Virus record (IMG/VR): IMGVR_UViG_3300037137_001673
Coordinates: 1-64,000 of that record
Source: a virus
DNA length: 64,000 bases
Reading direction: 5' to 3' (one strand)
The position numbers and the translations under genes were made by a program. Position 1 is the first letter of the stretch. The number at the start of each line of letters is the position of its first letter. Positions 49,133 to 63,009 of the stretch are shown piece after piece. The notes under the pieces are model-generated. The model had not been told where the DNA came from, did no database searches, and was given only the letters and a program-made list of their open reading frames with translations.

Positions 49133-49162
49133 ATAAAAATAGCTGACGTAACGACGCCAGCT
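49133..49162 (-). terminator. terminator of large RNA 1
   Basis: Minus strand AGCTGGCGT/ACGTCAGCT hairpin followed by ATTTTTATTT. Confidence 0.85.
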
Positions 49163-50078
49163 TATCGTTCGAACTTTCCCGAAAGTCATATGTCTTTCCA
49201 TATGTCAAAAGTCTTTCCTTCTGCCAGACAAGTTGCGCTAGTAAAATAACATACTATACAGCAACTATGTCCCATTTTAACTTCAAGGTATACTAAGCAC
49301 TGCTGTGACTTCCATGTTCAGAAACATCGCTATATTAGTAATAGGTTGTTTAACTGTGAAAGTAGCTAGCGTGGCGGTTCACCGAAGAAATGGTTTACGG
49401 GTTCACAAAGATTTGAACTCTGAACTTCTGGGTTGGAGCCAGAAATGTTGCCAATTACACTATGAACCCATTAGTGGAGGAACGGCTGACAAATAATAAC
49501 TCACTTGGCAACCACCCCTCCAAGCCCCTCTACACCTAATAGCCGAAGCTAAATTCGGGACAAGGCATTTTGATTAACTTACAAATAATATAAGTCAATC
49601 TTTTAATCTCTAACTTCAATCTTTTCTCATAATTATTCTTTACAATATATATATAATAAATTTTTTAACTAGGCGGCGGAATACCTGTAGTCATACTACA
49701 CCTTTTCTTTGTATTAGGCCAGTTGTTTTAATAGTTTCCGTTCGTGGAAGCAGCACGGCTAGTCTTTTTCCTAGTAGTCAGGACCTGTTCTTTCGTGTGG
49801 GTTCCCGCACTCGGATACGATAACGGTTGTATCGGGCGATGAAATTTTTATCCTTCTAATTATTCATACAAGGTCGTCATTCCCTTTCGACTGGGCTTCT
49901 CAATTGTAGTGTGAGAAGTAGCACTTACTTCTTTCTCAAATCCTTCCATTCCTTTTTGGAAATGTAGGTATGAGTTCCTGCTTTTACCGAACGTCTAGCA
50001 GCCTCATCATAAATACGGGTAATGTCTTTCGTTTCAATGTTCTTGATGCATTTCATCAGTTATTCCTCCATGCTTTCT
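49135..50078 (-). ncRNA. large structured noncoding RNA 1 with embedded tRNA-Trp
   Basis: About 0.94 kb without a credible gene, bounded by a TATAAT promoter at 50085-50113 and a terminator at 49133-49162. Many strong hairpins (for example GTGTGGG/CCCGCAC near 49797, CCGAA/TTCGG near 49542, GTAGT/ACTAC near 49695). Its 3' end carries the segment TGAC-hairpin-TGACT..CGGG-AAAGTTC that recurs, with compensatory changes in the hairpin, in the RNA at 61838-63009. A tRNA-Trp lies inside. Large phage RNAs such as GOLLD and ROOL are known near phage tRNA genes; membership is not shown. Confidence 0.65.
49398..49469 (-). tRNA. tRNA-Trp (CCA)
   Basis: Acceptor GGGTTCA/TGAACCC, anticodon stem TCTGG/CCAGA around CTCCAAC, T arm CAGAG-TTCAAAT-CTTTG, discriminator G. 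Lies within the large RNA 1 transcript. Confidence 0.92.
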
Positions 50079-50084
50079 TTCATT

Positions 50085-50113
50085 ATTATATCATAATTTT
50101 TGATTTTTGTAAA
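50085..50113 (-). promoter_or_regulatory. sigma-70-like promoter of large RNA 1
   Basis: Minus strand TTTACA, 17 nt, TATAAT; the predicted start is near 50078. Confidence 0.82.
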
Positions 50114-50118
50114 GTTTT

Positions 50119-50192
50119 TACTGGGAGAGAGATTTGAACTCTCATGACACTTATTTTGAGTAAGCGAAGTTTGCCAATTACTTCATCCCAGC
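50119..50192 (-). tRNA. tRNA with Leu anticodon CAA but short variable loop
   Basis: Acceptor GCTGGGA/TCCCAGT, D stem AAGT/ACTT, anticodon stem GCTTA/TAAGT around CTCAAAA, 5-nt variable loop GTCAT, T arm GAGAG-TTCAAAT-CTCTC, A73. Bacterial Leu tRNAs normally have a long variable arm, so charging identity is uncertain. Confidence 0.85.
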
Positions 50193-50446
50193 TTGTTATA
50201 TTTTTCAAAAGCGATTTGTCCCCACCAAGTTCTTTTTTGTGCTTCTACTTGTTTTGAAATTATATGTTCTTCGATAATTCCTTTTTTCAAAGTTTCAAAA
50301 AACATTCCAGCTCCAGATAGAAATTCTTTTGCTCCTTCATATGGAGTTAAACTTGCTTCTTTGTATAGAGAAAAAATTATGTCATCTAATTTTACAAAAA
50401 TTTCTCCACCTATATTTATATGAATGAAATTGTGGTCCATAGGCAT
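50183..50446 (-). CDS. hypothetical protein ending inside tRNA
   Basis: 87 residues behind GAGGT. No family recognised. Its TGA stop (50183-50185) is U8-G9-A10 of the tRNA that follows, so gene and tRNA overlap by 10 nt. It lies between two tRNA genes. Confidence 0.65.
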   Translation of the reverse strand: MPMDHNFIHINIGGEIFVKLDDIIFSLYKEASLTPYEGAKEFLSGAGMFFETLKKGIIEEHIISKQVEAQKRTWWGQIAFEKYNKLG

Positions 50447-50460
50447 TTACTTTACCTCAT

Positions 50461-50547
50461 TGCGCAAGAAAGGAATTGAACCTTCACGCCCCTTACGGAA
50501 CACGAGACTCTCATTCTCGTATGGCTACCAGATTACATCACTTGCGC
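50461..50547 (-). tRNA. tRNA-Leu (GAG), class II
   Basis: Acceptor GCGCAAG/CTTGCGC, anticodon stem CGAGA/TCTCG around ATGAGAG, long variable arm (about 17 nt with CC/GG pairing), T loop TTCAATT, A73. Confidence 0.9.
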
Positions 50548-50550
50548 GTT

Positions 50551-50625
50551 TGCGAGCAAAAGGAGTTGAACCTTCAAAAAGTAGATTCTAAATCTACCGC
50601 GTCTAGCCAGTTGCGCCATGCTCGC
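50551..50625 (-). tRNA. tRNA with Leu anticodon TAG but short variable loop
   Basis: Acceptor GCGAGCA/TGCTCGC, D stem GCG/CGC, anticodon stem GTAGA/TCTAC around TTTAGAA, variable loop TTTTT, T arm GAAGG-TTCAACT-CCTTT, A73. Adjacent to the class II Leu tRNA. Confidence 0.87.
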
Positions 50626-50630
50626 ATAAT

Positions 50631-51077
50631 TTAAAGATTTTCTAATTCGTTATTAAACCCATCGAAATCTGCTCTTTCAATTTTAAAAGCAATAATTTCT
50701 TTAAGATCAAATTTCTCATGAGAGTAAATAAATACAAATACAAAAGGGGAATCTTCTGTTGTAATTACTCTCCAGATATAACTTTTTTCTTTGAAGTAAA
50801 CTAAATTAATAATTGAACCTTCTACTTTTTCAGCAAAAATTTTTGCTACATGAAGAACTCCTCCATTGGCAGAAATTATTTTAGTTCCCTCAACTTCGAA
50901 AACTCCGCTAACTCCATAATCACTTATAATGGTATTTCCACCATCAAAAGAATGATACATTTTGTCCCATGTTCCTTGAAAAACTTTGTCAAATTCTTTA
51001 ACTTCAACAATCTTTGGCTGAGAAAAAATTGTAAATGATAAGAAGAGGAACAATAAAATGGAAAAAATCTTTTTCAT
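50631..51077 (-). CDS. predicted secreted protein
   Basis: 148 residues. N-terminal signal peptide: KK, hydrophobic ILLFLFLSFTIF, then a small-residue site before QPKIVEV near residue 20. The rest is beta-rich without cysteines. Lies between tRNA genes. Possibly periplasmic or surface acting, for example in exclusion of other phages; unproven. Confidence 0.68.
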   Translation of the reverse strand: MKKIFSILLFLFLSFTIFSQPKIVEVKEFDKVFQGTWDKMYHSFDGGNTIISDYGVSGVFEVEGTKIISANGGVLHVAKIFAEKVEGSIINLVYFKEKSYIWRVITTEDSPFVFVFIYSHEKFDLKEIIAFKIERADFDGFNNELENL

Positions 51078-51090
51078 AAAAAATCCTTAT

Positions 51091-51165
51091 TAGCGGAGGA
51101 GAGATTCGAACTCTCACTGACATCCTTTTAAGGGACGTGCCTCCTGCCAGTTGGGCTACTCCGCC
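51091..51165 (-). tRNA. tRNA with Leu anticodon TAA but short variable loop
   Basis: Acceptor GGCGGAG/CTCCGCT, anticodon stem CGTCC/GGATG around CTTAAAA, 5-nt variable loop TCAGT, T arm GAGAG-TTCGAAT-CTCTC, A73. Third Leu-anticodon tRNA with a class I body. Confidence 0.88.
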
Positions 51166-51821
51166 AAGTTAAAACTTACATTATTTTTAAACATTATATT
51201 TCTTATTCTAGCATAATTTCCTGCTTTAGGGGTTAATCCTGCTTTTATCAACAATTGTCTTATATTTTTAGTTTCACTTAATAACTCTATAATCTTTTCT
51301 TCACTTACCTGTATTTTACCTTTTCCTAAATTTCTCGCTCTAAAAGTATCAGATTGTGAATGACAATTAGGACAAAGAAATTCTAAGTTTTCTAATCTGT
51401 TGTCATTGTTAAATCCATTTTTATGCTCTAGTTCTAGAACTAATTTTTCTTCTTTCCAGATTCCTTCATTTCCACATTTTCTACATTTATATGGAATTAA
51501 GTTATATTTTATTAAATAATGTTTTAATCTACAAATTGCTATAAAAGAATTTGCTGAAAATATTTTATCTTTAGGAATTTTAGTTTTTATTCTTTCATCG
51601 TCAAAAAATGTTTTTCCCTTATTCCAACTAATTACTTTTTTAGTCTTTATACATTTTGTTAAATATTCTATTGATGCTCTACCTTCTTTGTGAGCTTTGC
51701 TAAGCCCTTCACTATTTTTTTTTCTATTAACTGGACATTGAGTATTCCACTTTTCACAGGTATTTCTTCCTGACTTATTTATAAATCTTGCTTCTTTTCC
51801 ACAACCATATTCGCATAGCAT
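51156..51821 (-). CDS. HNH homing endonuclease with N-terminal zinc finger
   Basis: 221 residues behind GGAGG. N-terminal Cys cluster (MLCEYGCGKEA), a KTKKVISWNKGKTF segment, then the HNH core: CRKCGNEG, LELEHKNGFNNDNRLENLEFLCPNCHSQ, and a C-terminal helix-turn-helix-like part (IRQLLIKAGL). Its TAG stop is positions 8-10 of the following tRNA. Located among tRNA genes, which such nucleases often target. Confidence 0.88.
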   Translation of the reverse strand: MLCEYGCGKEARFINKSGRNTCEKWNTQCPVNRKKNSEGLSKAHKEGRASIEYLTKCIKTKKVISWNKGKTFFDDERIKTKIPKDKIFSANSFIAICRLKHYLIKYNLIPYKCRKCGNEGIWKEEKLVLELEHKNGFNNDNRLENLEFLCPNCHSQSDTFRARNLGKGKIQVSEEKIIELLSETKNIRQLLIKAGLTPKAGNYARIRNIMFKNNVSFNLAE

Positions 51822-51896
51822 AAACTGCCTCCAAAAGTATCTTTACTGGCAATAACTATATATGCTATAACTATGCTCCTACCATTTTATAAAAAA

Positions 51897-51962
51897 AGGG
51901 ATGTAAAGGATTCTAACCTTCAACTTACTTTGATGTAAATTTTTCTTTTAAACTAACATCCC
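51897..51962 (-). tRNA. degenerate tRNA-like sequence (CAA?)
   Basis: Acceptor GGGATGT/ACATCCC and a T-arm AAGG-TTAGAAT-CCTT are present, but the D loop lacks GG and the anticodon loop (ATCAAA between TTTAC and GTAAG) has only 6 nt. Probably decayed or very unusual. Confidence 0.45.
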
Positions 51963-52082
51963 TATCAAGAACAACTCATTTTCAGTGAGGTCAAGATGCG
52001 TCCATCCTTTTACATCTTCACGTTCTAAGCCATTTAACCCATTGCTACGGAAGAAAGAGCGTTCTATCTTATTTAACTTTCC
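51948..52082 (-). pseudogene. open frame without start codon between two tRNA genes
   Basis: About 44 codons with protein-like content (GLEREDVKGWTHLDLTENEL near the end), no ATG/GTG/TTG at a sensible place, ending with TAA inside the next tRNA-like gene as other genes here do. It may be the 3' end of a gene whose start was replaced by tRNA-Phe. Coding is uncertain. Confidence 0.28.
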
Positions 52083-52084
52083 TA

Positions 52085-52158
52085 GCCCGAAGTGTTTGAA
52101 TCGAACAAACGACCGCTTGGTCTTCAGCCAAGCGCTCTACCAACTGAGCTAACTCCGG
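52085..52158 (-). tRNA. tRNA-Phe (GAA)
   Basis: Acceptor CCGGAGT/CTTCGGG, D arm GCTC-AGTTGGTA-GAGC, anticodon stem CTTGG/CCAAG around CTGAAGA, T arm TTTGT-TCGATTC-AAACA. Confidence 0.93.
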
Positions 52159-52161
52159 AAA

Positions 52162-52237
52162 GGGAGATTGACGAGGATTGAACTCGCATGATTCCTTGCT
52201 CCACAGGCAAGTGGCTTACCATTAGCCCACAATCTCC
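52162..52237 (-). tRNA. tRNA-His (GTG)
   Basis: Acceptor GGAGATT/AATCTCC, D arm GGGC-TAATGGTAA-GCC, anticodon stem CTTGC/GCAAG around CTGTGGA, T loop TTCAATC, C73 as usual for His. Confidence 0.92.
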
Positions 52238-52242
52238 AAGTA

Positions 52243-52313
52243 AGCCCTAGGTTAGAGTCGAACTAACTTTAATAGTTTACCGAACTATCGTTCTGCCGTT
52301 AAACTACAAGGGC
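52243..52313 (-). tRNA. tRNA-Thr (GGT), C33
   Basis: Acceptor GCCCTTG/CTAGGGC (one mismatch), anticodon stem ATAGT/ACTAT around TCGGTAA, so position 33 is C, T arm GTTAG-TTCGACT-CTAAC. Confidence 0.85.
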
Positions 52314-52913
52314 ATTTTCTTTTATTTTTATTATTTCTATGTTTTTTATGTTTATTAAATTTTGATGTATTTCTCTATGGCAATTAGAGCATACAAGAAT
52401 ACATTTATTTGCTTCTTCTATTAATTTAAACTTAGATTTTTCTAAACCATTACCACTTATTAAAAATTTTTTTTCATTTTTATTTTTATGATGAAAATCT
52501 AGAGCACTAAAACATTTATTGTATCCACAAACTTGACATTTACCCCCTTTTAAATCTGTTAATTTTCTTCTTATTTTTTTGCTTCTTGTATCTGTATATT
52601 TGTTAAAATTTTTAGCATTTATTCCATATGCTTGTGGACGATTTTTATCAAAGCATTCTTTACATAAATTTTCAGCACTTTTAGACATTCTACTACCACA
52701 AATTTTACAAATCTTTTTAATTTTTTTTATTTTATATCTATCTTCTTCATATCCTTTTTTAAGAGTTAAAGCTCTTTTAAAATTCATTTCATCCGATTGT
52801 ATTCTTTTATTAGAACAACTTCTAGAACAAAATCTCAAAGGATAATTTTTTGTGTGGTATTTATCCTTTCTCCAATCTTCAAAAAATTCCTTACCACAAC
52901 TTTCACAATTCAT
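52299..52913 (-). CDS. HNH endonuclease with multiple zinc-binding pairs
   Basis: 204 residues. N-terminal CESCGKEFF and CSRSC, a second pair CKICGS...CKEC, then the HNH core CQVCGYNKC, ALDFHHKNKNEKKF, CSNCHREIHQ. The last codons (A-L-V-V-stop) lie inside the 5' end of tRNA-Thr. The start is preceded by a long hairpin that can mask the ribosome site (52916-52968). Probably a mobile nuclease. Confidence 0.85.
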   Translation of the reverse strand: MNCESCGKEFFEDWRKDKYHTKNYPLRFCSRSCSNKRIQSDEMNFKRALTLKKGYEEDRYKIKKIKKICKICGSRMSKSAENLCKECFDKNRPQAYGINAKNFNKYTDTRSKKIRRKLTDLKGGKCQVCGYNKCFSALDFHHKNKNEKKFLISGNGLEKSKFKLIEEANKCILVCSNCHREIHQNLINIKNIEIIKIKENALVV

Positions 52914-52915
52914 AA

Positions 52916-52968
52916 TTGAACTCTCCCATATATATATTTACTACATTCAATAATATATATGAGTTCAA
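52916..52968 (-). promoter_or_regulatory. RBS-masking hairpin before the HNH gene
   Basis: TTGAACTC/GAGTTCAA outer stem and CATATATAT/ATATATATG inner stem flank the GGGAGAG ribosome site, part of which pairs in the outer stem. T4 homing genes such as I-TevI are known to be silenced early by RBS hairpins. Confidence 0.5.
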
Positions 52969-52992
52969 TTCTACCTACTGAGTTATAGTAGC
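52968..52992 (-). other. 5'-half tRNA remnant (acceptor strand and D arm)
   Basis: GCTACTA-TA-ACTCAGTAGGTAGAAT reads as the first 25 nt of a tRNA, but no matching anticodon arm or 3' acceptor strand follows; the HNH hairpin and gene begin instead. The radical SAM gene ends at its positions 8-10. Confidence 0.5.
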
Positions 52993-54929
52993 ATTCTTTC
53001 ACAATTATAAATATAGTTCCCATTTTTATAAGAGAACCAAACTACTTCTTCATACCAATCTTCCCAGTTTAACCACCTAATTTTAGAGCAGAGAATTTTA
53101 TATTGAACCTCTTTTTCCACTAGCTCAATTTCAATTCCTCTCAAAATTGCTTGGTAACACTCCCATATATTATAACTTAAATTTAAATTCTTGTCAAATC
53201 CTTGAAATGGTAGTTTTAAAAGAGTTTTATTTAATAATAAACTTTCGTGAAGTAGTTTTTCAAAACCAAAAGTATCTATTTTTGTTAAATAATCTGTAAG
53301 TATCTTTTCTGCTTCTACATAAAACTCATTTAATCTATTACTTTTAATTATGTCAATAAATTTATATTCATCAGTAGGCCACCAGATATTTAACCATTCT
53401 TTTGATTCACAATGAGGAATTTCTCCATTTTGTGTTTCCAATGCTTTTTTAGTAAAAAAAGAAATTATTTCTTCAAAAATTCCTGTAGATTTATTTTCAG
53501 TAAAAATTTCAGCTAATTTTCTAAAACTTATTCCATAAAATTTATTTAGAATAACAAATGGAATTTGTAGAAGTTTATTAAAGTGTAAAAGAGAAATTAC
53601 CCAAGCAAAAACTTTTGCCTTTATCCAGTCTTCTCTAGTTAAAGTATTTGTTGATGTTACTACTAATTCATTTTCAAAAACTTCTTCTACAGAAAGACTT
53701 CCGTGCCGATTAACAAGTTTCTTTTCCATTATATCAAAACTATATTTTTCTTGATATTCAATTCTTCCCATTTCAGCATTAGGGAGAATATTTAAATCTG
53801 AAAAAGTAATTCTGTTATGTTGTCCGTTTTCTATTATTTCTGAAATTCCATTTACATAAGAATCGTAAGTTTCTTCTGGCAGTCCTAAAATAATGTCTGT
53901 AAAAGCATCCACTCCAATGTTAGTTAATTTCTGTTTTACTTCTTTGAAGTGATTAATTTTCATATTTATTCTTTTTATTGCTTTTAAGGTATCTTCATTT
54001 GTAGATTGAAGGGAAAGAGAAATTGTAGTATTTAATCCAGCTTCTGCTAATAATTTGTAAGTATTATAAGTGTGTTCCTTAAAGTTTTTAGTGCTTTGAA
54101 CTGATATTCCTTCTGGATAACCAAACTTTATTTTATTATCTGCTACAAATTTAATAATTTCATAATCTCTTTCCAGCATTCCAAAATTAGAATCACAGCA
54201 AGTTATAAACTCAATTTTATTATTCTTGAACCATTCTACTTCTTTATAAAGTCTTTCCATGCCAAAAGTAAAAACTCTATTTTGTGTGGCAGAACCCCAG
54301 TCACAATAAGTGCAAGAAAAAGGACAACCTCTATTGGTTTCCCAAAGAGCAATCCAATTTACTTTTGGATTTGCTTTTATTAGTGGCTGGAAGATTTCTT
54401 CTAAAAATGGAGATGGAATACTATTTATTTCAAAAATTCTTGGAGGGTATTGAGAAAGTATTACTTCATTGTTTTTGTCTAAATAATTTATTCCGGAAAT
54501 TTCTCTCCAGTTACGATTAAAAAGATTTTTTAAAATTAAAGTAAAAGTTATTTCTCCATTACCAAGACAAGCCAAATTAACTTGAGGATTTTCTCTTAAA
54601 AATTTTTCTACTTTATCACAAGAAATTCCTGGTCCACCAAAAACGGTTATTACATTAGAATCTCTTTTTTTTAATAGTCTTGCTATTTCTAAAGAAATTC
54701 TTGTATTCCAAGTGTATAAACTAAAAAAAATTATCTCTGCACCAGATAATTCTCTTACTGCTTCTTTTAATGGAATTCTTTTATAGATTGGCAAAAGAAA
54801 TTCAAAATCACTTACATTATCTAAATACTTTTCAGCATATGCTTGTAATAATCCTAACGAATATGGCAAATACTCTTGATTAAAAAAAGAAGTATTTATC
54901 TGAACCATTCCTACTTTAATTTTTTGCAT
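52983..54929 (-). CDS. B12-binding-type radical SAM protein
   Basis: 648 residues behind AAAGGAG. N-terminal Rossmann-like cobalamin-binding-type domain (residues 1-150, VFGGPGISCDKV), then the radical SAM cluster motif RGCPFSCTYCDWGS with CxxxCxxC near residue 200 and a TIM-barrel region with LSLQSTNEDTLKAIKR. A helical domain of about 250 residues follows. Such enzymes do methyl transfers or ring rearrangements using SAM and cobalamin. Placement in the tRNA island hints at RNA modification or a host-metabolite role; not proven. TAA stop lies in a tRNA remnant. Confidence 0.85.
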   Translation of the reverse strand: MQKIKVGMVQINTSFFNQEYLPYSLGLLQAYAEKYLDNVSDFEFLLPIYKRIPLKEAVRELSGAEIIFFSLYTWNTRISLEIARLLKKRDSNVITVFGGPGISCDKVEKFLRENPQVNLACLGNGEITFTLILKNLFNRNWREISGINYLDKNNEVILSQYPPRIFEINSIPSPFLEEIFQPLIKANPKVNWIALWETNRGCPFSCTYCDWGSATQNRVFTFGMERLYKEVEWFKNNKIEFITCCDSNFGMLERDYEIIKFVADNKIKFGYPEGISVQSTKNFKEHTYNTYKLLAEAGLNTTISLSLQSTNEDTLKAIKRINMKINHFKEVKQKLTNIGVDAFTDIILGLPEETYDSYVNGISEIIENGQHNRITFSDLNILPNAEMGRIEYQEKYSFDIMEKKLVNRHGSLSVEEVFENELVVTSTNTLTREDWIKAKVFAWVISLLHFNKLLQIPFVILNKFYGISFRKLAEIFTENKSTGIFEEIISFFTKKALETQNGEIPHCESKEWLNIWWPTDEYKFIDIIKSNRLNEFYVEAEKILTDYLTKIDTFGFEKLLHESLLLNKTLLKLPFQGFDKNLNLSYNIWECYQAILRGIEIELVEKEVQYKILCSKIRWLNWEDWYEEVVWFSYKNGNYIYNCERMLL

Positions 54930-54957
54930 ATAACTCCTTTGACTTTATTTATGCTAT

Positions 54958-55028
54958 AGCCATCTGCTAGAATCAAACTAGCATCTTATTTGTACGAAAA
55001 ATTGATTTTATCATTAAACTAAGATGGC
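54958..55028 (-). tRNA. tRNA-Thr (CGT)
   Basis: Acceptor GCCATCT/AGATGGC, T arm GCTAG-TTTGATT-CTAGC. Anticodon stem AATTT/AAATA has an A-A mismatch around loop TTCGTAC. The reading CGT depends on this stem choice. Confidence 0.75.
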
Positions 55029-55038
55029 GTGAAATGTG

Positions 55039-55167
55039 TTATAAAACTTTATTAAAATAATGTTTAATTATTGTCTTTTTTTCTTTAATGAGAAACTTTA
55101 GACTAGCAGTAAAATATCCAAGATAAAATGTCCCTGGAATAATTAAAAATAACCACCAAGGACTCAT
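55039..55167 (-). CDS. 42-residue membrane protein
   Basis: Starts behind AAAAGGAA. MSPWWLFLIIPGTFYLGYF is a single membrane segment, followed by a basic tail. First of a run of small envelope proteins; function unknown. Confidence 0.6.
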   Translation of the reverse strand: MSPWWLFLIIPGTFYLGYFTASLKFLIKEKKTIIKHYFNKVL

Positions 55168-55170
55168 ATT

Positions 55171-56541: not shown

Positions 56542-56629
56542 TGGGCTGGGTAGGACTCGAACCTACGGTGTTTTGTCTGAGACGCTTGATTTACAGTCAA
56601 GGGGATTCGCCACTATCCTTAACCAACCC
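56542..56629 (-). tRNA. tRNA-Tyr (GTA), class II
   Basis: Acceptor GGGTTGG/CCAGCCC, anticodon stem CTTGA/TCAAG around CTGTAAA, long variable arm with GTC/GAC stem, T arm GTAGG-TTCGAGT-CCTAC, A73. Confidence 0.93.
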
Positions 56630-57011: not shown

Positions 57012-57015
57012 AAAT

Positions 57016-57026
57016 TTATCTTTACA
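57016..57026 (-). promoter_or_regulatory. TGTAAAGATAA element on the minus strand, 4 nt before ATG
   Basis: Same element and same 4-nt spacing as several plus-strand genes; the endonuclease gene has no Shine-Dalgarno. Confidence 0.5.
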
Positions 57027-57081
57027 TAAGAGAGTATAATACTCTTTTTATACAGACCGCCGACAAAATTATTTCCCAAAG

Positions 57082-57237
57082 AAAGATAGTCGCTTGCCAT
57101 AGTTACATATTGTGCTAGCCGTTTATCTAACACACCACTTGTTAAAATGGAGCAAGCCCCTTCACACTTAACTAATTCAAAATCTAGTAACTTGTCATTG
57201 TTGAATCAGAATCGCACTTGGGAGTCGACTATCTTTT
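57082..57237 (-). ncRNA. structured noncoding RNA closed by an 11-bp stem
   Basis: AAAGATAGTCG near 57237 pairs perfectly with CGACTATCTTT near 57082, enclosing about 135 nt with further hairpins (ATTCAA/TTGAAT, CACTTG/CAAGTG type pairings). No convincing gene. Directly downstream of tRNA-Ser and probably on the same transcript. No known family recognised. Confidence 0.5.
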
Positions 57238-57240
57238 TTA

Positions 57241-57325
57241 CGGAAGCGCAGCGATTTGAACGCTGAAAGGTTTCACCCTCGTCCGGGTTCAGACCGGATG
57301 GACTACCAGATTATCCCACGCTTCC
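57241..57325 (-). tRNA. tRNA-Ser (TGA), class II, C33
   Basis: Acceptor GGAAGCG/CGCTTCC, anticodon stem TCCGG/CCGGA around TCTGAAC (C at 33), long variable arm, T arm CAGCG-TTCAAAT-CGCTG, G73. Confidence 0.9.
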
Positions 57326-57375
57326 ATTAAGCAATTTTCTTTTTATCTTTCCGTTCTTTTTTCTCTTGTCTTTTT

Positions 57376-57404
57376 ATTATACCAGATTTTTCTTTTTCTG
57401 TCAA
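57376..57404 (-). promoter_or_regulatory. sigma-70-like promoter before tRNA-Ser
   Basis: Minus strand TTGACA, 17 nt, TATAAT, between the GIY-YIG gene end and tRNA-Ser. Confidence 0.85.
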
Positions 57405-57411
57405 TTTTCGC

Positions 57412-58056
57412 CTAAGCCAATTTAATTTTTTTTCTTTTTCTATTTGCTTCACTTATTTTCTTTCTAGTTTCTTCTGAAAAAACTTGGAGTTTTCTTTTTT
57501 CTTTAATTTTTTGTTTAGTTTCTTCCGAGTGATGCTTACCAAACATATTATTTTCTTCACCAATTTTTGCTTCACTCATTTTCTTTTTACTTTCTTCTGA
57601 ATGATGCTTGCCGAGCATACCATTTCCATTCTTCTTTTGTAGTTCGCTCATTTTCTTTATAGTTTCTTCTGAATGAGTTTTGCCTTCATGCGCTTTACTC
57701 ATTTTCCTTTTACTTTCTTCAGAATGGGTTCTTTTTCTATTTGCTTCACTTATCTTCCTTTTATGTTCTTTGTGAAGGTGTTTGTTTTTGTGCCCTCCAC
57801 TCTCAAAATTATATCCATTAGGAAAGATGCTATTACATTCTTGTATGTAATGCGTTTCCCAATAGTCAAGTTCTTTTTCTGGAACACTTTCTAATAAAAG
57901 TTTATCGAAATTATCACTTCCATATTTTTGTATTGCTTTTCCAGTTAAAGAGTTGGAATGTTGGTGACTTCTAAATCTTTTTTTAAAAGTTTGTGTTGTT
58001 TGTCCTATATAACACTTATCGTTTTTTCTATTTCTTAATATATAAATTATTCCCAT
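57412..58056 (-). CDS. GIY-YIG homing endonuclease with NUMOD3 repeats
   Basis: 214 residues. Core GIIYILRNRKNDKCYIGQT, Glu in ETHYI, Asn in NGYNF, then six NUMOD3-like repeats (KKMSEAKIGEENN...). Its ATG lies at the base of a hairpin whose loop holds AGGAG. Located between tRNA-Ser and tRNA-Val. Confidence 0.92.
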   Translation of the reverse strand: MGIIYILRNRKNDKCYIGQTTQTFKKRFRSHQHSNSLTGKAIQKYGSDNFDKLLLESVPEKELDYWETHYIQECNSIFPNGYNFESGGHKNKHLHKEHKRKISEANRKRTHSEESKRKMSKAHEGKTHSEETIKKMSELQKKNGNGMLGKHHSEESKKKMSEAKIGEENNMFGKHHSEETKQKIKEKRKLQVFSEETRKKISEANRKRKKIKLA

Positions 58057-58080
58057 ATATAGTCTCCTATAACTATATAT
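58055..58080 (-). promoter_or_regulatory. RBS-presenting hairpin before GIY-YIG gene
   Basis: ATATATAGT/ACTATATAT stem with loop TATAGGAG; the ATG directly follows the stem. Could hide the start codon in long transcripts. Confidence 0.55.
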
Positions 58081-58088
58081 GTCGCGAG

Positions 58089-58162
58089 TTGCGGATTGTT
58101 AGAGTTGAACTAACGACTTTTTGCGTGTCGAGCAAATACTCTACCACTAAGTTAAACCCGCA
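58089..58162 (-). tRNA. tRNA-Val (GAC), C33
   Basis: Acceptor TGCGGGT/ATCCGCA, D arm with GTGGTAGAG, anticodon stem TTTGC/GCAAA around TCGACAC (C at 33), T arm GTTAG-TTCAACT-CTAAC, A73. Confidence 0.86.
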
Positions 58163-58164
58163 TT

Positions 58165-58240
58165 TCGGAGTAGCTGGGTACGATCCAGCAAGTCTTCGCG
58201 TTCGAAGCGCGAGATTTTATCCAATTTAAACTATACTCCG
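58165..58240 (-). tRNA. tRNA-Arg (TCG)
   Basis: Acceptor CGGAGTA/TACTCCG, anticodon stem TCGCG/CGCGA around CTTCGAA, T stem GCTGG/CCAGC with atypical loop ATCGTAC. Confidence 0.87.
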
Positions 58241-58248
58241 GAAAAAAT

Positions 58249-58338
58249 AAAAGGTGCATAAAATTTCACTGAGACAATTGAGTAATCAATTATCTATAGA
58301 AGCCCCTATCGTAAAAATGATAGGAAATGCACCTTTTT
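58249..58338 (-). ncRNA. small structured RNA / terminator
   Basis: AAAAGGTGCAT near 58338 pairs with ATGCACCTTTT near 58249 and encloses two hairpins (CCTATC/GATAGG and AATTGA/TCAATT); a T-run follows, so it also acts as a terminator. Downstream of tRNA-Ala. Confidence 0.55.
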
Positions 58339-58364
58339 CAGATATGTTTTTAAAGAGGATACCG

Positions 58365-58466
58365 CCTCTATTATATTTTATAAAAGGGCTGGCTCGCAAC
58401 TGCTGAGCCAACTGGCTATTTATTAGGCCCCTGCGGTCTGCCAGCGTGCCGAGGTTCCACGCCCTA
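58365..58466 (-). ncRNA. structured spacer downstream of tRNA-Ala
   Basis: GC-rich for this genome, with hairpins GCGTG/CACGC, TGGCTC/GAGCCA and GAGG/CCTC. No reading frame of note. Could be a processed spacer or a small RNA. Confidence 0.35.
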
Positions 58467-58540
58467 TGGAGATAAAGAGAATCGAACTCTTAACCTACAG
58501 ACTGCCAGCCTGTTGCTCTGCCATATTGAGCTATATCCCC
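58467..58540 (-). tRNA. tRNA-Ala (GGC)
   Basis: Acceptor GGGGATA/TATCTCC, D arm GCTC-AATATGGCA-GAGC, anticodon stem ACAGG/TCTGT around CTGGCAG, T loop TTCGATT, A73. Confidence 0.9.
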
Positions 58541-58550
58541 GTTATTAAAC

Positions 58551-58802
58551 TTATCCCGATGGACCTGACCCAGTAATCAACTCTTCTGATTTACATTTAC
58601 TACATCTATAAACACAATAACTACCATTCAATTCTCCAGTGCTTTTCCATCTGTGTTTGCATTTTGAATTATAGTTGTGCTTTTTATCAAAGAAATATTT
58701 TTTTGGAGATAAAAACATCATTGCTATTACTACTAACATTCCTAGAAACATTATCCCTAGAAACATTATCAATATCAAACTCAGAATTATTGTCAACATC
58801 AT
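58551..58802 (-). CDS. membrane protein with zinc-ribbon tail
   Basis: 83 residues from ATG 58802 (AAAGGA upstream); an in-frame ATG 4 codons earlier lacks a ribosome site. One long hydrophobic segment (residues 3-35) and a C-terminal CKHRW...CVYRCSKCKSEE zinc ribbon. Function unknown. Confidence 0.62.
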   Translation of the reverse strand: MMLTIILSLILIMFLGIMFLGMLVVIAMMFLSPKKYFFDKKHNYNSKCKHRWKSTGELNGSYCVYRCSKCKSEELITGSGPSG

Positions 58803-58827
58803 TGTTCCTTTCATTCATTTTACCATA

Positions 58828-59088
58828 TTAGAAAATTCCCTGTTGAATGAAGTATCTAAACAATCTGCCACGACTTTTAATCCATTCAATAGAAATTCCA
58901 ATTGCTGATTTTAGTCCTTTAGGTTTGCCTATTTCTGTATCTTGGAAATCATAAGCAGCTGGACACATATCGCAAGGTTTTTCATTAATTTCACCATACC
59001 CAGCATTGCAGCAATTGTTTTTACATTTCCAGCATACAACCATCCAAGTTTTACAAAGTAAACAGTATTCCCATTTGTATGGGTTCAC
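58828..59088 (-). CDS. small cysteine-rich protein (GTG start)
   Basis: 86 residues; GTG start overlaps the Pth2 stop. Nine cysteines in pairs (CLLCKTWMVVCWKCKNNCC..., CDMC) suggest one or two zinc sites in the first 45 residues, followed by a basic tail. Coupled to Pth2 translation. Function unknown. Confidence 0.65.
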   Translation of the reverse strand: MNPYKWEYCLLCKTWMVVCWKCKNNCCNAGYGEINEKPCDMCPAAYDFQDTEIGKPKGLKSAIGISIEWIKSRGRLFRYFIQQGIF

Positions 59089-59480
59089 AGCAGTTTCAAT
59101 TCTCCTGTTATTGCATCTATTTTTTCTTCTTCATCTGGACCTATTGCTATACAAGTATTTGTAGGCATTCCATGAAATTCTGTAAGCCCGTTATCTTTAA
59201 TAAGAGCATTAGGAATTTTTGCTTCAAAAGCTTTTTTCTGTATTTCTAGAAGTTCTTCTTCGCTATTAACACCAACTACAATTTTAGTAAAAGAACCATC
59301 TCCATAATTCATCCATTTAATCATGGGTTCAGGTATATTAAATATTTCAAATCTGTCATGGTCAGTCCATTCTGCCATATCGAAAAACACTTTCATTGAG
59401 GCATGAGCTACCTGTGCGGCAAGTTTTCCTTTCCGCATATTTAAATCTTTACGAACTACTATTACTTGTTTTACGCTCAT
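59085..59480 (-). CDS. pth2: peptidyl-tRNA hydrolase, Pth2 family
   Basis: 131 residues, the usual family length. Signature segments: KQVIVVRKDLNMRKGKLAAQ with VAHAS, then KIVVGVNSEEELLEIQKKA, KDNGLTEF and TCIAIGP...IDAITGELKLL. Pth2 enzymes, typical of archaea and eukaryotes, release tRNA from stalled peptidyl-tRNA. In a phage with over 20 tRNAs it would recycle tRNA during heavy late translation. Downstream of a tRNA cluster and coupled to a Cys-rich gene. Confidence 0.9.
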   Translation of the reverse strand: MSVKQVIVVRKDLNMRKGKLAAQVAHASMKVFFDMAEWTDHDRFEIFNIPEPMIKWMNYGDGSFTKIVVGVNSEEELLEIQKKAFEAKIPNALIKDNGLTEFHGMPTNTCIAIGPDEEEKIDAITGELKLL

Positions 59481-59598
59481 GTTTTTCTAAAAATTACCAT
59501 TAAAGCTTCAGCTGTTATATTAAGCCCTCTACTAGCTATATATTTTCCAAGTTTTGAATTAAATAAATAAACTATATTTTTAATTTTGTTATTTATAG

Positions 59599-59671
59599 AG
59601 GGATAGATAGGAATCGAACCTACAAAATGATGGGTTGCAATCATCCGCCTTTGCCATTCAGCCACTATCCC
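59599..59671 (-). tRNA. tRNA-Cys (GCA)
   Basis: Acceptor GGGATAG/CTATCCC, anticodon loop TTGCAAC, T arm GTAGG-TTCGATT-CCTAT, U73 as in Cys tRNAs. The stem-closing pair is A-C. Confidence 0.9.
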
Positions 59672-59743
59672 ATTGGACCTTGCGTGATTTGAACACGCCT
59701 GAATTTCTCGGTGCAAGCGAGACGACCACCCTAGCAGTCCCAA
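59672..59743 (-). tRNA. tRNA-Ala (TGC)
   Basis: Acceptor TTGGGAC/GGTCCAA (one mismatch), anticodon stem TCTCG/CGAGA around CTTGCAC, T arm GCGTG-TTCAAAT-CACGC. Abuts tRNA-Cys without spacer. Confidence 0.8.
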
Positions 59744-59752
59744 AGCCCTATT

Positions 59753-59830
59753 CTCCGGCGGCTGGACTCGGACCAGCGACCCTTTGTTTAACAGACAAAC
59801 GCTTTTATCTACCATCTGAGCTACGCCGGA
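59753..59830 (-). tRNA. tRNA-Asn (GTT)
   Basis: Acceptor TCCGGCG/CGCCGGA, D arm GCTC-AGATGGTA.., anticodon stem TTTGT/ACAAA around CTGTTAA, T arm GCTGG-TCCGAGT-CCAGC, G73. Confidence 0.93.
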
Positions 59831-59841
59831 AAGTTTTCAAT

Positions 59842-59922
59842 AGCTAATAGTAGGATTTGAACCCACGGTGTTTGTATTCTTGCTTACAAAGCAAGCCCAT
59901 TCGACCACTCTGGCATATTAGC
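59842..59922 (-). tRNA. tRNA with Thr anticodon TGT on a class II-like body
   Basis: Acceptor GCTAATA/TATTAGC, Ser-like D arm CCAGAGTGGTCGAATGG, anticodon stem CTTGC/GCAAG around TTTGTAA, 12-nt variable region AATACAAACACC without a stem, T arm GTGGG-TTCAAAT-CCTAC. Amino-acid identity is uncertain (Thr by anticodon, Ser by shape). Confidence 0.8.
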
Positions 59923-59927
59923 AATAG

Positions 59928-59998
59928 AGCGACATGTCAGACTTAAACTGACCTCTCTAGCTTGGAAGGCTAGGGCACAATCTCTATACCAATGTCGC
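59928..59998 (-). tRNA. tRNA-Gly (TCC)
   Basis: Acceptor GCGACAT/ATGTCGC, anticodon stem CTAGC/GCTAG around CTTCCAA, T arm GTCAG-TTTAAGT-CTGAC. Confidence 0.92.
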
Positions 59999-60001
59999 AT
60001 A

Positions 60002-60074
60002 CGGAGTTGATGGGTGACACTCCCACTATTTCAAGATTGACAATCTTGCGGCTCTGTTGACTGCCTCCAACTCC
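60002..60074 (-). tRNA. tRNA-Asp (GTC) with atypical D and T loops
   Basis: Acceptor GGAGTTG/CAACTCC, anticodon stem CAAGA/TCTTG around TTGTCAA, G73. T stem GTGGG/CCCAT encloses AGTGTCA instead of TTCRANN, and the D loop lacks GG. Confidence 0.85.
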
Positions 60075-60078
60075 AAAC

Positions 60079-60216
60079 TTATTTCTTCTTAAATATGCCT
60101 TTGATTTTATTCCATAGCCATGCTGCTGCATCAGCAATTGCTTTCATAACTACATCACCAGCATACTTACCAACGAAAAATGCTATAACTACTAATGCTA
60201 ACCAAATCAACCACAT
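60079..60216 (-). CDS. 45-residue membrane protein
   Basis: MWLIWLALVVIAFFVGKYAG membrane segment, then an amphipathic helix with a basic end (WLWNKIKGIFKKK). Starts behind AGAGG with a TTGACA/TAAGAT promoter upstream, so it heads the transcript of the tRNA cluster that follows. Holin-like size, but no evidence for that role. Confidence 0.62.
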   Translation of the reverse strand: MWLIWLALVVIAFFVGKYAGDVVMKAIADAAAWLWNKIKGIFKKK

Positions 60217-60234
60217 ATATTGCCTCTTTTATTT

Positions 60235-60263
60235 ATCTTAACATTTAATTTAATTTTTGTCAA
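60235..60263 (-). promoter_or_regulatory. sigma-70-like promoter of the 60074-58249 tRNA/Pth2 segment
   Basis: Minus strand TTGACA, 17 nt, TAAGAT, before the 45-residue membrane protein. Confidence 0.78.
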
Positions 60264-60265
60264 GC

Positions 60266-60604
60266 TTACATGTGCCAGCTTAAAACCTTTTCTCCATAAT
60301 CAGCTGGACTTCCTGCTAGCAAATCAAGCAATTCTTTTCTTGAACCGCCAACATTAGTTAGCAAGCAAAATAGGATTGTAGAAAAAATAAGACAGGCCAT
60401 AAATGTAGGCAAGAACACAATTATTGATTCTGATTTTTTCATAACCAAAATACAAATAATTATGAGAGAAACAAAATAAATAATTTCTAGTAAAAAACTA
60501 TGAGTTGCCCCACCAATAAATACTCCACCAATATATCCAATAATGGCTGGAACAAGCAATCCTATTAGAAGAACGCCTACTGCTTTCCCTAAAAAATTAT
60601 CCAT
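60266..60604 (-). CDS. multi-pass membrane protein
   Basis: 112 residues from ATG 60604 (AAGGAAAGG upstream); an in-frame ATG 15 codons earlier overlaps the previous gene. Three hydrophobic segments (residues 5-35, 38-60, 62-85). Function unknown. Confidence 0.66.
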   Translation of the reverse strand: MDNFLGKAVGVLLIGLLVPAIIGYIGGVFIGGATHSFLLEIIYFVSLIIICILVMKKSESIIVFLPTFMACLIFSTILFCLLTNVGGSRKELLDLLAGSPADYGEKVLSWHM

Positions 60605-60615
60605 TTTTCCTTTCC

Positions 60616-60966
60616 TTAGTCCCACAAATAAAACATGTATTTTACACAAAGCTTTTCTGCTTTTCGCATTCTTTCTTTGTTTTCATCCATTTCTTTCCAG
60701 TCATCCCTAATGAGTAGTTTCACAAACCACAGCATTTCCTTAAGAACATCAGTGTAAGCTTTGTCCCCATTGACATCTCCCAGTTTTTCAAACTCACTAG
60801 GAAATCCATAGTGATTATGGATTAGGTGAGTAAGTCTAGGAACAATCCATTTACACATTGCTATACCAAAATCCCATACTTCATCATTAGAATAACCACG
60901 AGTTATTTTTTGATAGAGTAGTTTAATTTTATAAGTAATGCTTTTACCAAAATATCCAATACGCAT
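60616..60966 (-). CDS. hypothetical protein
   Basis: 116 residues, basic, helical, with WDFGIAMCKWIVPRLTHLIHNHYG and WKEMDENKERMRKAEKL. No family recognised. Downstream of tRNA-Ser(GCT) by 17 nt. Confidence 0.65.
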   Translation of the reverse strand: MRIGYFGKSITYKIKLLYQKITRGYSNDEVWDFGIAMCKWIVPRLTHLIHNHYGFPSEFEKLGDVNGDKAYTDVLKEMLWFVKLLIRDDWKEMDENKERMRKAEKLCVKYMFYLWD

Positions 60967-60983
60967 ATTTTTTTCCTTTTTAC

Positions 60984-61073
60984 CGGAAAGTAAGAGATTT
61001 GAACTCTTGAACCTTGTTTAAGGGTTGCGGCGTTAGCGGTGCCGTGGTTTTAGCCAGACTCACCCAACTTTCC
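60984..61073 (-). tRNA. tRNA-Ser (GCT), class II, C33
   Basis: Acceptor GGAAAGT/ACTTTCC, anticodon loop CCGCTAA (C at 33, stem with an A-C pair), variable arm AACC/GGTT, T arm AAGAG-TTCAAAT-CTCTT, G73. Confidence 0.85.
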
Positions 61074-61077
61074 TAAT

Positions 61078-61254
61078 TTAAATTTCCTTTAATTTCTGTA
61101 TTTCAGTTTTTTCTTCTTTGCTGATTTCTTCGATGAGTATTTCATTAACGAGTTCATTAAAGGTAATGTCTCGTCTGTGTGCTTCTCTTGCTAGAAAGAG
61201 AAATTCTTCATCGCTTATTTCAACCTCTACATTAACCATTTTTTCCTCGTTCAT
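61078..61254 (-). CDS. 58-residue ribbon-helix-helix-like protein
   Basis: VNVEVEISDEEFLFLAREAHRRDITFNELVNEILIEEI resembles a ribbon-helix-helix fold (strand, helix, turn, helix), typical of small DNA-binding regulators. Overlaps the upstream frame by 23 nt. Ends 5 nt before tRNA-Ser. Confidence 0.58.
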   Translation of the reverse strand: MNEEKMVNVEVEISDEEFLFLAREAHRRDITFNELVNEILIEEISKEEKTEIQKLKEI

Positions 61255-61378
61255 TTATTGCTCCTTCTTGAAGTATATAATTTGTCCAGAACCATCCTTT
61301 AATAAAACTATAATAATAAGTCTTTTTTTCAATTATTAAAAAGTTAAACATCTTGGATAAATAAATAACTTTATCCAT
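61232..61378 (-). CDS. 48-residue hypothetical protein
   Basis: Abuts the 61379 gene and overlaps the RHH-like gene. Aromatic-rich middle (KKTYYYSFIKGWFWTNYIL). No motif recognised. Confidence 0.48.
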   Translation of the reverse strand: MDKVIYLSKMFNFLIIEKKTYYYSFIKGWFWTNYILQEGAINERGKNG

Positions 61379-61570
61379 TTATTTAGTATCTCCAGTTGTT
61401 ACTTCTATATTTAATATATCTATATTTACAACTATGTAAGAACTATCGCCAGCTTTTACCTTTGCTAAAGTCATCTTATCTTGTAAATTCCAAACTTCTT
61501 CAATAGTTCCATTGAAATTTATATAAGATACTTTTTTATTTACTAATTTTTCTGCTTCTTCTAATTTCAT
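61379..61570 (-). CDS. 63-residue hypothetical protein
   Basis: Small beta-rich protein (KVSYINFNGTIEEVWNLQ..., SSYIVVNIDILNIEV). Abuts the gene upstream. Part of the 61741-60266 operon. Confidence 0.58.
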   Translation of the reverse strand: MKLEEAEKLVNKKVSYINFNGTIEEVWNLQDKMTLAKVKAGDSSYIVVNIDILNIEVTTGDTK

Positions 61571-61741
61571 TTATTTATTTTTCTTCTCAAGAGAGGAAAG
61601 TAATTCATCAACTTCGGAAGCTAGATAAACTTCTGTATGTCTCTCGTTATGGAAAGCATGGGCAATAATCATTGCTGGAGTCATGTCTTTGTAGGCTTCT
61701 ACTAAACAAGTATCTGCCCAATATAACTTCAATTTATTCAT
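61571..61741 (-). CDS. 56-residue hypothetical protein
   Basis: Starts behind AGGAG; first gene after the promoter at 61760-61788. Contains MTPAMIIAHAFHNERHTEVYLAS. No family recognised. Confidence 0.6.
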   Translation of the reverse strand: MNKLKLYWADTCLVEAYKDMTPAMIIAHAFHNERHTEVYLASEVDELLSSLEKKNK

Positions 61742-61759
61742 TTCCTAACTCCTAAAATA

Positions 61760-61788
61760 ATTATATCACAAATTTTGATTTTTGTAAA
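61760..61788 (-). promoter_or_regulatory. sigma-70-like promoter
   Basis: Minus strand TTTACA, 17 nt, TATAAT, before the 61741 gene and after the terminator of large RNA 2. Confidence 0.85.
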
Positions 61789-61832
61789 TAACTATTCACG
61801 AAAACCGCCCTTCTGCCACATATATCTTAGAC

Positions 61833-61880
61833 AAAAAAATGGGCACCAGGCTTGCCTACAAGAGCTTACCCAGCACCCAT
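61833..61880 (-). terminator. terminator of large RNA 2
   Basis: Minus strand TGGGTGC.../GGTGCCCA hairpin followed by seven T residues. Confidence 0.75.
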
Positions 61881-63009
61881 ACGGAACTTTCCCCGTAGTC
61901 ATTGTGTCTTTTCCACAACGTCAGTGTAAAAGGTCTGGAAGGTAATTTATTTTTAAGTGTAAATTTCCACTACCACGAAACCACTCCCCGTATCTTTTTC
62001 GAGGCGTCACTTCCATTTACGATGATGGTTGCCTAACGGATACTTTATCAGTCACCTAGTCTTCCCTAGGAGCCATACACATAAACCTTTTCGCTGGCGA
62101 TCAACCCAGCAGTTTTTATTGCTTCGTTCCATATTTAATGATAGGGGAGGCAATAAGATCGCAATTGGTGCGAAGCATCCGCATACGCAGGTGACATTCG
62201 ACAAAAGCGAACTGGTAGGGTCCAGAGTCGAACTGGAATCATTCACCTTATGAGAGTGACAATCTACCATTAATATACCCTACTACGAAAATGCGAAGAG
62301 AAACGACCGTATCAAGAGAGCATCGAACGAAGTAACCGCATCAATTACAGCGCCTAGCTCTTGGTGGATTCTCAATTAATGAACGCCTTACGGCAGGTCA
62401 TTCTAAAAAAGAGAGAGAAAAAAATGGGTAGGATTAACATTTACCTACAAAGTAGATTCACTTTCAGATTATTCAGCCACTACACCCACTCCTCCGTCGA
62501 GAAGGGGCTTGTATGTAGGAAGGATTGAGTACCTTCAAGTCAGGCAGTGAGTAGTGCCATTATAATGGCTCAGGGATTTCTGCCCTTCTCCTTACTAGTT
62601 GTGCGAACCCCAAGGGTTGTACGACCCCCAACTAGCTTTCGTGCTTTATCTGCGCAGCGAACTTCTAGCTCTCACCAGTTCTTCACTGACAAGACGCCTT
62701 ATCCACCTCAATGGATTGTTCGGCAACCAAATTTTTCTCTCAAATTTAAAAGAACTATACAACTATTGCCCTTTAGACAATAGAAGATCTGTTCCCACAC
62801 ATGGTGGGTCAGGTTTTAATCGTTCTGACTTTCGCACAGAACTGGGCGACTGCGTCTCTACCGCAATTTTAACCTTAAAGTAGTTTCACCACCATCTAGG
62901 CTGTCCACTACTAAAATTACAAAATAAAGGAACAAGGATTTGAAAGACGAGATGCCCGAAGGCGATAACATTTACAGTGTTGATAACGCCTTTTCATTCA
63001 GTTCCTTAT
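61838..63009 (-). ncRNA. large structured noncoding RNA 2 with embedded tRNA-Met
   Basis: About 1.17 kb without a credible gene, GC-richer than its surroundings, with its own promoter (63016-63044) and terminator. Many hairpins, for example GGGGCTTG..CTCC types near 62500 and CTAGTTG/CAACTAG near 62600-62635. Near its 3' end (61884-61923) it shares with large RNA 1 the pattern TGAC, hairpin, TGACT, CGGG, AAAGTTC; the hairpin is TTGTG/CACAA here and ATATG/CATAT there. A tRNA-Met sits inside. Resembles large phage RNAs such as GOLLD or ROOL in size and setting only. Confidence 0.68.
62214..62283 (-). tRNA. tRNA-Met-type (CAT)
   Basis: Acceptor GTAGGGT/ACCCTAC, anticodon stem TCACT/GGTGA around CTCATAA, T arm TCCAG-TTCGACT-CTGGA. 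Initiator, elongator or Ile (modified C34) type cannot be decided by eye. Embedded in large RNA 2. Confidence 0.9.

What the first reader, a model, noticed from the sequence alone, without database searches (positions are those of the whole stretch)
49135..63009. Two related kilobase-scale RNAs with embedded tRNAs and a covarying 3' hairpin
The regions 49135-50078 and 61838-63009 both have a private promoter, no genes, an embedded tRNA (Trp, Met) and a terminator. Just before each terminator lies TGAC, a hairpin with loop GAAAGA/GAAAAGA, then TGACT, CGGG and AAAGTTC. The hairpin stem is ATATG/CATAT in one and TTGTG/CACAA in the other, so pairing is kept while sequence changes. This is strong evidence for a conserved RNA fold. 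Large phage RNAs (GOLLD, ROOL) occur near tRNA genes and form big assemblies; these could be members or a new class that carries tRNAs.
Basis: partly seen in the sequence, partly recalled or inferred. Interest (0 to 1): 0.88.

Follow-up and report, generated by a model that had tools for sequence, protein, structure and literature searches.

The report
Uncatalogued tRNA-island RNA in phage
One of the two gene-free stretches in this phage holds a roughly 350-base folded RNA of a kind missing from the RNA catalogue, shared with Lak and 735-kilobase giant phages and usually lying among their tRNA genes, while the second stretch is not shown to be related.

Summary
The window is part of a 76-kb record of a T4-like myovirus with at least 30 tRNA genes. 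Region B (minus strand, 63012 to 61838) is gene-free, with its own promoter, a tRNA-Met and a terminator. Its core, 62757 to 62405, belongs to a conserved structured RNA family that Rfam does not hold as such. I found about 21 distinct members, including Prevotella Lak megaphages, the 735-kb huge phage and many IMG/VR contigs; 21 of 29 loci lie within 2.5 kb of tRNA genes, several 4-5 nt from one. A profile built without the window or Lak finds this core at E = 5e-7. Covariation is strong (35 of 56 pairs, 0 of 500 shuffles). The family is probably related to the "manA" RNA (sub-threshold end-to-end hits; manA also abuts a tRNA in cyanophage S-SSM7) and shares one hairpin module with ROOL. It is not GOLLD. 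Region A is not a member: it carries a 43-codon ORF, and only a ~40-nt 3' motif links it to B, found nowhere else. Best reading: a stable trans-acting phage RNA made within the tRNA island; its action is unknown.

The parts
63016..63044 (-). sigma-70-like promoter of unit B (TTGACA-17-TAAGAT, TG before the second hexamer)
   Evidence: consensus match only
62758..63012 (-). 5' extension of the B RNA upstream of the conserved core; its first helix strand GGAACU (63005-63000) can pair with AGUUCC (61888-61883) just before the terminator
   Evidence: fold; no homologue found
62405..62757 (-). conserved core: member of a manA-related phage tRNA-island RNA family
   Evidence: nhmmer profile without window/Lak E 4.9e-7; CM R2 without window 43.9 bits E 8.5e-7; covariation; own MFE fold reproduces the consensus
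62727..62741 (-). 5' strand of closing helix P1 (GAGAGAAAAAUUUGG), pairs with 62427-62413
62519..62536 (-). hairpin GAAGG-UACUCAAU-CCUUC, the module shared with Lak RNA and ROOL
62469..62484 (-). UGUAG (pairs with CUACA 62518-62514) followed by UGGCUGAAUAA, a conserved junction
62428..62448 (-). terminal hairpin GUAGGUAAAUGUUAAUCCUAC of the core, the manA-like GGUA...AAUCC hairpin
62413..62427 (-). 3' strand of closing helix P1 (CCAUUUUUUUCUCUC)
62212..62285 (-). tRNA-Met(CAU), 133 nt downstream of the core, same transcription unit
61883..61923 (-). 3' motif of B: TGAC, hairpin GTTGTG-GAAAAGA-CACAA, TGACTACGGGGAAAGTTCC
61836..61880 (-). terminator of B (13-bp stem, then U7)
   Evidence: sequence
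50085..50113 (-). promoter-like site upstream of region A (TTTACA-17-TATAAT)
49925..50056 (-). 43-codon ORF at the start of region A (MKCIKNIETKDITRIYDEAARRSVKAGTHTYISKKEWKDLRKK) with GGAGG before the ATG; no family match
   Evidence: sequence
49135..49924 (-). noncoding part of region A; no homologue found
49397..49470 (-). tRNA-Trp(CCA) in region A
49171..49207 (-). 3' motif of A: hairpin CATATG-GAAAGA-CATATG then ACTTTCGGGAAAGTTC, preceded by a second GAAAGA-loop hairpin
49141..49162 (-). terminator of A

Best explanation
Region B is a promoter-driven phage transcript of about 1.17 kb in the tRNA island. Its core (62757-62405) is a member of a conserved structured RNA family that is a probable relative of manA RNA and shares one hairpin and junction module with ROOL. 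Proposed mechanism: the transcript is made with the tRNA operon; tRNA-processing enzymes cut out tRNA-Met and leave a stable folded RNA; the closed domain, with its conserved exposed loops, works in trans, most likely by RNA-RNA (loop-loop) contacts as in ROOL and GOLLD, rather than as a leader that switches a downstream gene. Shown by computation: the conserved fold, the homology, the promoter and terminator motifs and the tRNA-island location. Inferred: transcription, processing, trans-action, multimer formation. Region A is a separate unit (small ORF, structured spacer, tRNA-Trp) that shares only a 3' terminal motif.
For: Homology: an nhmmer profile of 13 members chosen without the window, Lak or loci fetched with the shared GAAGG motif hits 62736-62418(-) over profile positions 22-323 of 325, E 4.9e-7 in 684 kb, next best E 2.9; 500 shuffles of the core reach at most 3.1 bits against 27.0. 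CM R2 without the window: 43.9 bits, E 8.5e-7, next window hit 14.2 bits. Structure: 95.2% of cells paired, 35 of 56 pairs with changes on both sides, 0/500 shuffles, and slid controls lose it; 21 distinct sequences of the 3' module give 12 of 15 pairs with changes on both sides; the window's core alone folds to the consensus. Family breadth: L199-Lak 76% over 233 nt, E 4e-32; the 5'-module model R3 hits contigs fetched only by a 3' pattern, down to E 3e-22. Trans-acting location: 21 of 29 members have tRNAs within 2.5 kb, L242, L250 and L271 only 4-5 nt from one; in the window the next element downstream is tRNA-Met. GC is 0.44 in B against 0.34 for the genome.
Against: No expression data. 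The 5' extension (63012-62758) and the 3' part with the tRNA and the 3' motif have no homologues, so the one-RNA status of the 1.17 kb rests on one sequence. The 5' module model R3 scores the window weakly (17.9 bits, E 0.21). manA was proposed as cis-regulatory (PMC2864571). Multimer formation is only an analogy with ROOL. Eight members show no tRNA nearby, some near contig ends.
Confidence: 0.72

Rival explanations
1. The core is a manA-type cis-regulatory element (riboswitch candidate) that controls what follows it, here tRNA-Met or a downstream gene.
For: Sub-threshold manA hits in 8 family members (18-31 bits). manA was described as lying in potential 5' UTRs (PMC2864571). In P-SSM2 and P-SSM4 it lies among protein genes.
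Against: In the window, Lak, L242, L250 and L271 no coding gene follows directly, only tRNAs; the nearest gene after B lies beyond its terminator. Even true manA abuts tRNA-Gly in S-SSM7.
Confidence: 0.15
2. One reading: A and B are two members of one kilobase-scale RNA class that carries tRNAs, defined by the common 3' hairpin motif.
For: Shared 3' motif at the same place before the terminator; each unit holds one tRNA; A folds better than shuffles and both are richer in GC than the genome.
Against: A shows no match to the family (8.6 bits), ROOL, GOLLD or manA; A begins with an ORF; the motif is found in no other locus. It could be a 3' stability element carried by unrelated transcripts.
Confidence: 0.1
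3. The core is a divergent ROOL RNA that would assemble into a ROOL-like cage.
For: R2 hits ROOL of L206, L211, L214 and L217 at about 31 bits; same hairpin GAAGGUANUCAAUCCUUC and following CUACA...UGUAG UGGCUGAAUA; same tRNA-island niche.
Against: The Rfam ROOL model finds nothing in B at E <= 10. Those ROOLs were fetched by that very motif, and the independent profile matches ROOL only there (E 0.002). The core is ~350 nt against 574 positions in the ROOL model.
Confidence: 0.08
4. The regions are ordinary non-functional spacers of a tRNA operon, kept only for processing.
For: Many spacers in this phage and its relatives are unconserved; noncoding fold scores are only slightly better than coding ones.
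Against: Strong cross-phage homology and covariation of the B core. This rival may hold for A.
Confidence: 0.03

Closest known systems
manA RNA (Rfam RF01745)
   Same: 5' GUGACUGAAUAA-hairpin-UAAgG start, 3' hairpin GGUA..CAGGAAUCC, closing helix around the domain; T4-like phages; in S-SSM7 directly upstream of a tRNA.
   Different: Family members score 18-31 bits against a cut-off of 55.2; they hold a central part with the GAAGG hairpin and junction that manA lacks; about 300-350 nt against 192; mostly in tRNA islands rather than 5' UTRs.
ROOL RNA (Rfam RF03087)
   Same: Hairpin GAAGGUANUCAAUCCUUC followed by CUACA...UGUAG UGGCUGAAUA; tRNA-island location.
   Different: No ROOL model match in the window; different 5' and 3' ends; similarity limited to the motif by which the ROOL loci were fetched.
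GOLLD RNA (Rfam RF02032)
   Same: Large phage RNA of tRNA islands, some carrying a tRNA in the linker (PMC12286853).
   Different: No GOLLD match in B or in ten related records over the cut-off; no sequence similarity to the GOLLD of L216.
Noncoding RNA in the tRNA clusters of Prevotella Lak megaphages and in the 735-kb phage LR756501
   Same: Direct members of the same family as the B core.
   Different: About 300 nt, without the window's inserts and 5' extension; these records carry no annotation in the collection.

Membership tests
tRNA-island RNA family described here (Lak / LR756501 / L199 type) | Match to a profile of members that leaves the window out | tested here: met
   nhmmer E 4.9e-7; CM R2 E 8.5e-7
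tRNA-island RNA family described here (Lak / LR756501 / L199 type) | Consensus helices P1, P2 hairpin, GAAGG hairpin, junction stem and terminal hairpin form in the window sequence | tested here: met
   43 of 51 scorable pairs; own MFE shows these helices
tRNA-island RNA family described here (Lak / LR756501 / L199 type) | Location near tRNA genes | tested here: met
   tRNA-Met 133 nt downstream; 21 of 29 members near tRNAs
manA (RF01745) | Score at or above the gathering cut-off (55.2 bits) | tested here: not met
   21.9 bits; best family member 31.1 bits
manA (RF01745) | 5' GUGACUGAAUAA and 3' GGUA...AAUCC hairpin inside a closing helix | tested here: met
   (window has GUUGCCGAACAA at the 5' end, a diverged form); weak profile hits at both ends of the P-SSM4 manA
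ROOL (RF03087) | Match to the Rfam model | tested here: not met
   no match up to E 10
ROOL (RF03087) | Octameric RNA cage | not testable with these tools
   needs cryo-EM or native gels
GOLLD (RF02032) | Conserved 3' region as in the Rfam model | tested here: not met
   no match in G000 up to E 10
Region A as a member of the same family | Match to family model R1 | tested here: not met
   8.6 bits with filters off

The most novel reading that the evidence does not exclude
The manA 'riboswitch candidate', the Lak-type tRNA-island RNA and ROOL belong to one old clan of trans-acting phage RNAs that share a junction and hairpin module; the window holds an expanded, kilobase-scale member with a tRNA inside the same folded transcript, which may assemble into a multimer.
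Probability: 0.3. Interest if true: 0.87.

Novelty: new variant of a known kind. Interest (0 to 1): 0.7.

Why it matters
Large phage RNAs of unknown function (GOLLD, ROOL) became a topic once they were seen to form RNA-only cages. Here is a further conserved family, present in Lak and 735-kb phages and in a T4-like phage, that Rfam does not list and that links the tRNA-island RNAs to manA, so far called a riboswitch candidate. It gives alignments and models that can be tested at once in phages with known hosts, and suggests that manA should be re-examined as a free RNA.

Tried and rejected
GOLLD and ROOL in the window by Rfam at E <= 10 and by GOLLD search of ten related records: none. Exact pattern for the A/B 3' motif in IMG/VR: none; relaxed search in 2.3 Mb of loci: only A and B. 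blastn of A and B in the phage collection: A gives tRNA-Trp matches and weak chance-level ones; B gives the 27-30 nt Lak match that opened the case. Direct DNA comparison with the nearest relatives (MCP 54-70% identical): no useful match; their noncoding regions are unrelated in sequence. Local fold z-scores: only a mild excess in noncoding DNA. U-run after the terminal hairpin as a terminator of B: rejected, it is the 3' strand of P1. Last IMG/VR scan with GTAGTGGCTGAATAAT: ten chance hits, at most 16 bits in R1, a useful negative control. Comparison of A and of the B flanks with ROOL, GOLLD, manA and family members: nothing beyond one AT-rich chance match. ROOL in phages and plasmids by blastn to get unselected ROOLs: none usable.
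Full report
What the window is. The window is bases 1-64000 of a 75,970-base virus record. Major head protein (PHROG 138), tail sheath, RNA ligase and many homing endonucleases mark a T4-like myovirus. At least 30 tRNA genes lie on the minus strand between 49 and 71 kb. Relatives with a 54-70% identical head protein, and more distant ones found with a peptidase of the same region, have similar tRNA islands, including contigs of 201 and 208 kb, but their noncoding DNA is not alignable with regions A and B.

Check of the observation. Both regions exist as described, on the minus strand. A promoter-like site, one tRNA and a terminator are found for each. Region A starts with a 43-codon ORF behind GGAGG (50056-49925), so it is not gene-free. 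The common 3' motif is real as sequence: whole-length A-B similarity is matched by 4 of 300 shuffles, the 3' ends alone by none of 1000. The covariation claim rests on two pairs in two sequences. The motif was found in no third place.

The lead. blastn of region B against phage genomes gave a 27-30 nt match to ten Lak megaphage genomes, in unannotated DNA. In Lak this is a noncoding stretch between tRNA genes. Similarity continues beyond the seed: hairpin GAAGGUANUCAAUCCUUC, then UGUAGUGRCUGAAUAAU. The Lak stretch also matches the 735-kb phage LR756501. Two pattern scans of IMG/VR brought further members, for example L199, L198 and L208, several inside tRNA clusters.

The family. Alignment A5 of eight members including the window (62765-62412) gives an RNAalifold consensus of 56 pairs, 35 with changes on both sides. 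Counting on the named structure gives 95.2% of cells paired and a covariation score of 0.634 against 0.227 in shuffles (0 of 500 reach it); sliding the partners by 1-3 columns drops pairing to 38-45%. A scan for the terminal-hairpin loop in IMG/VR and for a central motif in bacterial genomes raised the 3' module to 29 hits, 21 distinct, with 12 of 15 pairs changed on both sides. The 5'-module model R3, which does not contain the fetch pattern of that IMG/VR scan, scored many of those contigs down to E 3e-22, and the bacterial-bin contig L308 at 2e-25 (L307 and L308 were fetched by a motif inside the 5' module). The family is therefore real and structured.

Is the window a member? Models without the window were used to avoid circularity. 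R2 (3' module) hits 62546-62418 at 43.9 bits, E 8.5e-7; the next hit in the window has 14.2 bits. R3 (5' module) gives a weak hit (17.9 bits, E 0.21) at 62739-62620, directly upstream and colinear. Because Lak was found with a piece of B, I also built a sequence profile from 13 members, leaving out the window, Lak and everything fetched with the GAAGG motif. It hits 62736-62418 over almost the whole profile at E 4.9e-7 in 684 kb, next best E 2.9. Shuffles of the core reach 3.1 bits against 27.0. The core folded alone shows the family helices, including P1 between GAGAGAAAAAUUUGG and CCAUUUUUUUCUCUC.

Relation to named RNAs. Rfam holds no family that covers these members at its cut-off. The manA model matches eight of them below threshold, mostly end to end (18-31 bits, cut-off 55.2). 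True manA RNAs of P-SSM2, P-SSM4 and S-SSM7 share the 5' GUGACUGAAUAA with most family members and a 3' hairpin of the form GGUA..CAGGAAUCC (P-SSM4), and the independent profile places weak hits at both ends of the P-SSM4 copy. The manA of S-SSM7 ends one base before tRNA-Gly, the same context as L242, L250 and L271. I take manA as a probable compact relative. ROOL loci L206, L211 and L217 carry the GAAGG hairpin and junction; R2 scores them at about 31 bits, but they were fetched by that motif and the independent profile sees only the motif, so a shared module is shown, common descent is not. GOLLD is excluded by the searches made.

Mechanism. Shown here by computation: conserved fold, location in tRNA islands, promoter and terminator motifs of B. 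Inferred: B is transcribed as one unit, tRNA-Met is cut out, and the remaining RNA is stable and works in trans. A leader role is less likely because tRNAs, not protein genes, follow. Loop-loop multimers are proposed by analogy with ROOL and GOLLD (PMC12286853), not shown. That phage tRNAs can lie in such RNAs is stated for GOLLD in the same paper.

Region A. It does not match the family, ROOL, GOLLD or manA. Its fold is better than shuffles (z -3.85), but that stretch includes the tRNA, the terminator and the ORF. I treat it as a separate unit with a structured spacer.

Limits. No expression data; IMG/VR was scanned by exact patterns, so the family's true size is unknown; the 5' and 3' thirds of B have no homologues; model E-values are rough.

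Noticed in passing
L084:18749-18828 (minus): Relative G011 has a tmRNA-like gene of only about 80 nt (Rfam tmRNA 59.7 bits) that seems to lack the tag domain; G024 has similar short sequences (L185 near 2945-3030).
   Followed up: no
L182:17520-17810: Relative G023 (201-kb contig) appears by eye to carry a full-length tmRNA gene in its tRNA island.
   Followed up: no
L084:18450-18560 and L085:6480-7590 (minus): Relative G011 has four similar promoter-driven ~130-nt RNAs (AGATTRGTTTTGAGTT...GTTCAATGTTC...AATCT) with closing stems and U-runs.
   Followed up: no
L005:6100-7800 (record 69.1-70.8 kb): A run of short gene-free units, each behind its own strong promoter (TTGACA..TATAAT) and several with long closing stems, next to tRNAs.
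   Followed up: no
L216:2784-3119 (minus): A 385-kb IMG/VR contig has an RNase P RNA-like sequence (86 bits, cut-off 100), a GOLLD RNA and many tRNAs close together.
   Followed up: no
L189:1118-1303: In Lak-A1 a tRNA-Thr gene is split by an insert that itself holds a weak tRNA match; in Lak-B2 (L190:1234-1306) a full-length tRNA precedes the family RNA at the corresponding place.
   Followed up: no
L307:125-428 and L308:3524-3828: The RNA also lies in two contigs binned as bacterial MAGs (one called Bacteroidales); L307 has 17 tRNAs in 8 kb, so it may be a huge phage in the bin.
   Followed up: partly
L210:1586-1683 and 2069-2166: Two copies of the 3' module about 480 nt apart in one tRNA-rich contig (28.8-32 bits in R1).
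   Followed up: no
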